DNA of 64,000 bases from Candidatus Omnitrophota bacterium (GTDB lineage: Bacteria > Omnitrophota > Gorgyraeia > JAUYCX01): positions 1-64,000 of the forward strand of contig JAUYCX010000041.1 in assembly GCA_030692045.1 (NCBI GenBank), given 5' to 3'. Shown here piece after piece: positions 19,355 through 20,422 of this stretch (positions are counted from its first letter, which is position 1; each line of letters starts with the position of its first letter). The notes beneath the pieces were generated by a model that had not been told where the DNA came from, ran no database searches, and worked only from the letters and a program-made list of their open reading frames with translations. Position numbers and translations under genes: made by a program.

Positions 19355-20422
19355 TTATTCCTTCAGCCACTGCTGCGGAGGGTTGCGCAGAAACCGTTCC
19401 GTAAAGATATCGTCTGTTATGCTTAAATTGTATTTCACCTCTTGAAAGGTCACTTCTGTACTGTGGCCAGTTTTAACATTTCTCATCGCCCTCTTGGTTA
19501 TGGTTAGAATCCCATCTATATCTTTAATCTCTAAGGCTTCAAAGGTTCGATATAGTTCATTCTGTCTATCATAGAATTCTTCTTTTATGGGCAAAAAGTT
19601 TGCTTCGTCAATCCACGAGACTCTTCTGGTGTACGCTGAAGTCTCTTTGGGAAGGCTTTCGATAACGAAACAAGTTCTATTATTTATCATCTCTTTTTTT
19701 AACATAGTATGGCTGTCCTCTTCCGGCTTTCTGCCCGAAATGTCCTCATAACTGAAGTCGCTTCCCACAAAGCTCGAGAACTTATCGTTACTAGCGATCC
19801 TCTTGACTAAATCGAGTGCAGGGATGAATAGCCAACGGTCGTCATCCCTCTCAGGGTACTTATAGACCATAAATGTGGTATCCTTCACATCCGCTGGTCT
19901 ATGAAAATACATATAGTACTTTTGATTGCCGCCATCTTCGTAATCCTTCCTTAACATTGTAAGTTCCCTTACCCTCTTTTGGCCAACTTTATTTATAAGC
20001 TCCATCAGAACCTTTGCGCGCATATCTTCGCCTGCGTAATAAAAACGGGCGTAACAGACACGAACGATTTCTTCCGGAGTTAACCTGTCACTGGAAAAAG
20101 ACACCTTTGTCCAGATTATTCCTAACGCCAATATCATAATCCCAAATTTTGCGATAGCAAATTTTGCCCCGAAGGGGTTGCGCGACAAAATCCGAAGAGG
20201 ATTTTGTCGGCTTCGCAAGGTATCCCGGATTTTTCTCGCCTGCCTACGGCAGGCAGACGCTATTTTACGCAGCCACAAAATTTGGGATACCCCGCAAAAC
20301 TGGCCAAATTCTCGTCGAATTTGGCCATGCGGCCCCTCACTATCGCTCGGGGAGGATTTTTCTTCGCCCGCCAGCGGCGGGCAGGAAAAATCCGGGATAA
20401 TCAATGCTTTTACATATCTCAT
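19355..20422 (-). CDS. Outer membrane lipoprotein-sorting (LolA-like) protein with an in-frame insertion in the signal-peptide coding region
   Basis: LolA-like core (YMYFHRPADVKDTTFMVYKYPERDDDRWLFIPALDLVKRIASNDKFSSFVGSDFSYEDISGRKPEE); N-terminus MRYVKALII preceded by GGAGGG. Confidence 0.8.
   Translation of the reverse strand: MRYVKALIIPDFSCPPLAGEEKSSPSDSEGPHGQIRREFGQFCGVSQILWLRKIASACRRQARKIRDTLRSRQNPLRILSRNPFGAKFAIAKFGIMILALGIIWTKVSFSSDRLTPEEIVRVCYARFYYAGEDMRAKVLMELINKVGQKRVRELTMLRKDYEDGGNQKYYMYFHRPADVKDTTFMVYKYPERDDDRWLFIPALDLVKRIASNDKFSSFVGSDFSYEDISGRKPEEDSHTMLKKEMINNRTCFVIESLPKETSAYTRRVSWIDEANFLPIKEEFYDRQNELYRTFEALEIKDIDGILTITKRAMRNVKTGHSTEVTFQEVKYNLSITDDIFTERFLRNPPQQWLKE
20142..20396. 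repeat. 255-bp palindrome-rich insertion, flanked by ATAATC direct repeats
   Basis: ATAATC at 20136-20141 and 20397-20402; interleaved inverted repeats A 20139-20151/A' 20276-20288 and B 20222-20235/B' 20385-20398; several internal hairpins. Confidence 0.8.

What the first reader, a model, noticed from the sequence alone, without database searches (positions are those of the whole stretch)
20136..20402. Palindrome-rich element inserted in frame inside a signal-peptide coding sequence
The LolA-like gene has an SD-supported start encoding MRYVKALI, then 87 odd codons, then MILALGIIWTKVSFSSDRLTPEE. ATAATC occurs at 20136-20141 and 20397-20402, exactly 261 bp apart (87 codons). Removing one copy plus the insert gives MRYVKALIMILALGIIWTKVSFSS, a textbook Sec signal peptide. 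This looks like a recent in-frame insertion, analogous in principle to Rickettsia palindromic elements. Whether the protein is still exported is unclear.
Basis: partly seen in the sequence, partly recalled or inferred. Interest (0 to 1): 0.9.

Follow-up and report, generated by a model that had tools for sequence, protein, structure and literature searches.

The report
Mobile palindrome inside a signal peptide
A 256-bp hairpin-rich jumping DNA, one of a family scattered through Omnitrophota genomes, has recently landed in frame inside the export-signal part of a membrane-trafficking gene, and relatives of it sit in frame in the export signals of two other proteins, showing how selfish DNA can enter proteins without breaking them outright.

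Summary
Window 20141-20396 is a 256-bp hairpin-rich element flanked by a 5-bp target duplication (ATAAT, 20136-20140 and 20397-20401). It interrupts codons 8/9 of a LolA-like gene and adds 87 open codons. The element belongs to a family found only in Omnitrophota in these searches: many copies in DeMMO3_15 and in genus g106, one in this genome. Its ends are CCCGGATTTT...AAAATTTGGG, its targets are WTNAW, and compensatory changes conserve its hairpins. No transposase partner was found. Two relatives are also in frame inside signal peptides (a glycoamylase and a PstS-like protein) and one is in the RpoB C-terminal tail; a 92%-identical glycoamylase keeps a shorter in-frame version at the same site. 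This is a MITE-like element that works like Rickettsia palindromic elements but is a separate family. Frame maintenance favours translation through the insert rather than removal or bypass. Whether the LolA-like protein is still exported is unknown; SignalP, proteomic and transcript tests could not be run here.

The parts
20141..20396 (-). mobile palindromic element, 256 bp, read CCCGGATTTTTC...AAAATTTGGG on the coding strand; several hairpins
   Evidence: delimited against >20 copies; fold z=-8.3; covariation
20136..20140 (.). target-site duplication, copy on the 3' side of the insert relative to the gene (ATAAT)
20397..20401 (.). target-site duplication, copy on the 5' side of the insert relative to the gene (ATAAT)
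19355..20422 (-). host gene: LolA-like outer-membrane lipoprotein-sorting protein, 355 aa with the insert (268 aa in relatives)
   Evidence: PF17131 E=1e-63 at residues 165-346; relatives
20402..20422 (-). first part of the interrupted signal peptide (MRYVKAL), with the native start codon
20092..20139 (-). remainder of the interrupted signal peptide, from the internal ATG (MILALGIIWTKVSFSS)
20301..20327 (.). internal hairpin TGGCCAAATTC...GAATTTGGCCA
   Evidence: strongest covarying helix (helix 4)
20183..20209 (.). internal hairpin CGACAAAATCC...GGATTTTGTCG
   Evidence: helix 7
20239..20253 (.). hairpin CCTGCCTACGGCAGG (submodule absent from some copies)
20367..20381 (.). hairpin CCCGCCAGCGGCGGG (submodule absent from most copies)
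20495..22786 (-). upstream MMPL/RND-type transporter gene; its end is syntenic with the G044 orthologue locus, showing the flank is genuine

Best explanation
A non-autonomous, MITE-like palindromic transposable element transposed into the signal-peptide codons of a LolA-like gene and duplicated the 5-bp target ATAAT. Element plus duplication is 261 bp, a multiple of three, and its plus-orientation frame 1 has no stop, so the gene stays open and now encodes 87 extra residues within the signal peptide. The element comes from a family in Omnitrophota whose hairpins are conserved as structured nucleic acid and that lands at WTNAW sites, mostly between genes or at their very ends. Insertions inside genes persist when they stay in frame in dispensable stretches such as signal peptides or C-terminal tails. 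Shown: insertion, empty site, family, ends, target duplication, frame. Inferred: mobilisation in trans by a DDE transposase, because there is a target duplication and no coding capacity; arrival from another lineage; translation through the insert; impaired or altered export.
For: Empty sites: P0122-P0124 (95-98% identical over the mature part, 268-270 aa) read MRYVKVLIMLLALGII...; the G044 orthologue is uninterrupted with the same start context. Family: 66 hits in G021 with best identity 86% over 229 bases and copies in g106, G170, G200. Without any filter on duplication, 18 of 22 complete copies have the central TNA duplicated and 12 of 22 all 5 bp. Hairpins: 13 pairs with two-sided changes against 6.6 +/- 1.5 shuffled, 0 of 500. 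Other in-frame insertions: glycoamylase L046, PstS-like P0001, RpoB tail L077. P0002, 92% identical to L046, keeps a 27-codon version at the same site, again in frame; empty orthologues P0003-P0006 and L123-L130.
Against: No autonomous partner with these ends was found: no pair of ends 0.5-3 kb apart in G021 or G322, and lone ends lie beside ordinary genes. Only one copy was found in the window's own genome, though assembly may lose repeats. The in-frame examples from protein searches are biased towards open frames. Genic insertions found from DNA alone include failures: a TGA in L081, truncation of a DUF486-like gene in L074, and a prepilin-like gene in L066 that continues into the element instead of a pilin C-terminus.
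Confidence: 0.9

Rival explanations
1. The insert effectively inactivates the gene or its export: the long hairpin and the loss of an N-terminal hydrophobic segment leave a cytoplasmic or untranslated product, and the gene is a young pseudogene that still looks open.
For: Peak 11-residue hydropathy in the first 60 residues falls from 3.14 (without insert) to 1.30. The mRNA is extremely structured near the start. A few residues conserved in relatives differ in the window copy, e.g. TSEY to TSAY and VRACY to VRVCY. The insertion is recent, so lack of decay says little.
Against: No stop or frameshift in 355 codons. Similar insertions at two other signal peptides stay open, and one of these persists with a length change that keeps the frame in a 92%-identical relative.
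Confidence: 0.35
2. The protein is still exported because translation restarts, or export is directed, near the 3' end of the element: ...FGAKFAIAKFGI joined to MILALGIIW recreates a charged region followed by a hydrophobic core.
For: Hydropathy 2.85 for FGIMILALGII at residues 93-103, preceded by K87 and K92; in-frame TTG at codon 79 and ATG at codon 96. The same element tail abuts the hydrophobic core in L046 and P0002. L081 has a stop early in the element but Met codons after it in the preserved frame.
Against: Neither internal start has a convincing ribosome-binding site. In P0001 the hydrophobic core lies upstream of the insert, so this route cannot be general.
Confidence: 0.25
3. The ribosome bypasses the insert, or it is removed from the mRNA; the duplicated target supplies identical take-off and landing codons.
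For: The target duplication places ATT codons on both sides in the same phase and the hairpin is strong.
Against: Bypass or removal would not require an open, in-frame insert, yet window, L046, P0002, P0001 and L077 are all open and in the same frame.
Confidence: 0.04
4. Assembly or binning artefact.
For: The genome is a fragmented draft with 7.5% estimated contamination, and element copies in G021 often lie at contig ends.
Against: Both flanks belong to one gene whose closest relatives are contiguous, the neighbouring gene is syntenic in G044, and a complete element with a perfect target duplication is not what a chimera produces.
Confidence: 0.03

Closest known systems
Rickettsia palindromic elements (RPE; Ogata et al. 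2000, as described in PMC10969869 and PMC2229807)
   Same: Short palindromic repeats, dispersed, inserted in frame in unrelated protein genes, each family with an open reading frame kept in use; structured as stem-loops.
   Different: RPEs are described as about 105-150 bp and from Rickettsia, with target duplication listed as unknown. Here about 90-320 bp, in Omnitrophota, with demonstrable WTNAW target duplications and recurrence in signal peptides. No sequence comparison with RPEs was made.
ERIC/RU-1 and YPAL/RU-2 of enterobacteria (Delihas 2007, PMC2759123)
   Same: MITE-like repeats with open frames fused to genes; [quoted passage not shown]
   Different: There the repeat supplies part of the signal peptide; here it splits pre-existing signal peptides whose uninterrupted versions are known. 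Different ends and different hosts.
Prokaryotic MITEs in general (review PMC10969869)
   Same: Terminal inverted repeats, target duplication, no transposase gene, many scattered copies.
   Different: No parent insertion sequence identified here; internally modular with several independent hairpins.
REP elements with RAYT (Y1) transposases
   Same: Dispersed hairpins in bacterial genomes; Y1-type genes exist in several of these genomes, including this window.
   Different: Target duplication is present here, and no element ends flank the Y1 genes.

Membership tests
MITE (miniature inverted-repeat transposable element) | short element without its own transposase gene | tested here: met
   Complete copies 86-316 bp, no coding beyond the open frame
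MITE (miniature inverted-repeat transposable element) | terminal inverted repeats | tested here: met
   CCCGGATTTT / AAAATTTGGG, imperfect (positions 4-5 differ)
MITE (miniature inverted-repeat transposable element) | target-site duplication | tested here: met
   12 of 22 exact 5 bp, 18 of 22 central 3 bp without filtering
MITE (miniature inverted-repeat transposable element) | related autonomous insertion sequence with the same ends (often, not always, identifiable) | tested here: inconclusive
   None found in G021 or G322 with an exact end pattern; limited test on draft genomes
Rickettsia palindromic elements | palindromic, stem-loop forming repeat | tested here: met
Rickettsia palindromic elements | in-frame insertion in protein-coding genes of unrelated function | tested here: met
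   LolA-like, glycoamylase, PstS-like, RpoB tail
Rickettsia palindromic elements | sequence belongs to a described RPE family / occurs in Rickettsia | tested here: inconclusive
   Exact 23-mer of the element found only in Omnitrophota in a scan of 85,488 species genomes; no Rfam match in the window; no direct comparison with RPE sequences was made
REP/RAYT system | Y1 transposase gene flanked by copies of the element | tested here: not met
   17 Y1 loci in 5 genomes carry no exact element ends; only short weak matches
REP/RAYT system | no target-site duplication | tested here: not met
   Duplication present

The most novel reading that the evidence does not exclude
The element family is adapted to survive in signal peptides: its target preference suits T-rich hydrophobic-core codons, and its fixed reading frame ends in a charged, hydrophobic stretch (...AKFAIAKFGI) that rebuilds a working export signal with what remains, so the insertion largely repairs itself at the protein level.
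Probability: 0.12. Interest if true: 0.8.

Novelty: new member of a known kind. Interest (0 to 1): 0.55.

Why it matters
Protein-coding palindromes have been discussed chiefly for Rickettsia, with scattered enterobacterial and other cases. This is a distinct family in a little-cultured phylum, with filled sites, empty sites and target duplications all visible. It therefore catches the process early and lets one ask which protein segments tolerate selfish DNA. Signal peptides were hit in three unrelated proteins, and one site shows an in-frame length change between close relatives, so the evolution of an insert inside a protein can be followed and tested.

Tried and rejected
Conserved domain at the insert: rejected, no relative has one. 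Native start at the internal ATG: rejected. Element of phage or plasmid origin: no match in viral contigs, phages or plasmids. Known RNA family: no Rfam hit in the window. Copy elsewhere in this genome: none. The own genome has other palindromic repeats of similar style but different sequence. Parent insertion sequence: not found. Y1/RAYT as mobiliser: no ends beside Y1 genes. L047, first thought to be an in-frame signal-peptide insertion, is more likely in the 5' untranslated region: no ATG/GTG/TTG upstream of the element in that frame and a GTG start a few codons downstream (my reading). AlphaFold model of the host protein from seven sequences: mean pLDDT 38.7, unusable. In the alignments the window copy was entered shifted by one base; this changes only its end columns. 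L138 entered in reverse orientation and was left out.

Full report
1. What is there. The LolA-like gene at 19355-20422 (-) has 355 codons. PF17131 covers residues 165-346 (E = 1e-63). Codons 9-95 correspond to a 256-bp element at 20141-20396 plus one copy of a 5-bp duplication, ATAAT, which stands at 20136-20140 and 20397-20401. The strand is strongly self-complementary (-134.1 kcal/mol against -89.4 +/- 5.4 in shuffles, z = -8.3).

2. It is an insertion, and recent. A search with the mature part returned three clusters 95-98% identical with lengths of 268-270 aa. 355 minus 87 is 268. The orthologue in G044 (70% identity) begins MKNIKILIMILALGVLGMIWTKASNSSDALTPEE, with the same ATAAAGATG start context and the same upstream MMPL gene end. 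So the native start is the upstream ATG, and the internal ATG at 20137-20139 is residue 9 of the uninterrupted protein.

3. It belongs to a mobile family. Searching the LolA-like protein in relatives brought in a distant genome (G021) 20 times, matching only the insert. By DNA, G021 gives 66 hits, the best 86% identical over 229 bases. A class-wide sample of 392 genomes found matches in ten, including three of genus g106; a phylum sample found nine. An exact 23-mer from the core hit only Omnitrophota records in a scan of one genome each for 85,488 species: DeMMO3_15, NC_groundwater_1780, NC_groundwater_1970 and UBA10147. Matching contig lengths and positions identify these with G021, G370, G322 and G129. 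The window's own genome has one copy. An element about 86% identical to copies in another family of the class, yet absent from the nearest relatives of the gene, points to horizontal arrival; this is inference, and unassembled copies in the draft cannot be excluded.

4. Anatomy. Complete copies start CCCGGATTTT and end AAAATTTGGG. Taking every pair of these ends 180-320 bp apart with no condition on the flanks, 18 of 22 have the same three central flanking bases (TNA) and 12 of 22 all five. In the larger set, which was chosen for similar flanks apart from one copy, T and A are invariant around a variable base that always agrees between the sides. The target is thus WTNAW, and the duplication is 5 bp or possibly a 3-bp core with strong outer preferences. 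Internal hairpins come and go as modules, and shorter versions exist. Across 12 copies, 13 of 64 pairs show changes on both sides with the pair kept (shuffles 6.6 +/- 1.5), and 34 cells against 10.9 (0 of 500 shuffles; sliding the partner destroys it). The shuffle test does not remove relatedness of the copies, but the slid controls do. The element is therefore conserved as a folding strand, not primarily as a peptide.

5. Where copies land. After removing the element in a script, most copies lie between genes or at their edges, e.g. at the stop codon of a P-II gene, at the end of an oppF-like gene, and just before ispE-like and yidC-like starts (these gene names are my reading of the translations). 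Clear insertions inside genes found from DNA are: window LolA-like, L046 glycoamylase (PF10091), L077 RpoB C-terminal tail (name from the sequence), L081 N-terminus of a membrane protein (in frame but with one TGA), L066 prepilin-like and L074 DUF486-like. The first three stay open. Protein search adds P0001, a PstS-like protein (PF12849) with the insert between the hydrophobic core and the cleavage region of its signal peptide; uninterrupted PstS orthologues include one in G021 itself. The open cases all use the same strand and frame. That frame is also the most often open in the family, 11 of 26 copies against 3 and 5 for the other forward frames, but copies are related, so this is descriptive. 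P0001 and the window were found because they are open, so the proportion in frame is not a fair estimate, and no enrichment test for signal peptides was possible with so few cases.

6. Frame is maintained. L046 carries 81 inserted codons at MKFEMKSFL|...|ILALLILQAQALFAEDL. P0002, 92% identical, has 27 codons at the same place (MKFERKGFL|IPDFFSSAKGAQALFCACALAQAKFGI|ILALLILQAQALFAEDI), and four other relatives have none. Different lengths, both multiples of three and both open, suggest that translation runs through. It is one site, so the support is moderate. It argues against bypass or removal from the mRNA.

7. Consequence for the protein. Without the insert the hydrophobic core peaks at 3.14 near the start; with it the first 60 residues peak at 1.30 and the core moves to residues 93-103 (2.85). 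Export is therefore doubtful from the native start. The tail of the element...AKFAIAKFGI, supplies charge and hydrophobicity before the core, so an internal start could give a signal peptide, but no ribosome-binding site supports it. I could not run SignalP and leave function open: exported through a rebuilt signal, exported poorly, or lost.

8. Comparison with the known. RPEs are the nearest in behaviour (PMC10969869, PMC2229807). Enterobacterial RU-2 contributes part of a signal peptide in one Yersinia protein (PMC2759123). A text search for Omnitrophota with miniature inverted repeats returned nothing. The present family meets the main MITE criteria; no parent insertion sequence was found. 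It works like an RPE, but membership in RPE is not claimed.

Noticed in passing
window 20435-20492: A second, unrelated palindromic stretch (CAAATTTACTTCGTAAATTTG and CCGCCA...TGGCGG) sits between the MMPL and LolA-like genes, where G044 has only a short spacer; partial copies elsewhere in the genome.
   Followed up: partly
L006, L010, L011, L012 (own genome contigs C71, C91, C92): The own genome has another palindromic repeat family (GTCAATTTCTCGCCTGCCGCAGGCAGGCAGGAAATTGAC), 92-100% identical between copies, several at contig ends.
   Followed up: no
window 55358-56020 (-): Y1 transposase of the REP-associated type (220 aa); seven Y1 matches in this genome.
   Followed up: partly
window 56683-61542 (-): Large RHS/YD-repeat protein of 1619 aa.
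   Followed up: no
L077 601-2128 (-): RpoB C-terminal tail of G203 carries a 53-codon in-frame copy of a short relative of the element.
   Followed up: yes
L074 around 1500-1730 (-): Copy in the last transmembrane segment of a DUF486-like gene of G129 introduces a stop, a natural disrupted contrast case.
   Followed up: partly
P0217 (339 aa): Another LolA-like protein with an odd N-terminal extension of about 75 residues before its signal peptide; not compared with repeats.
   Followed up: no
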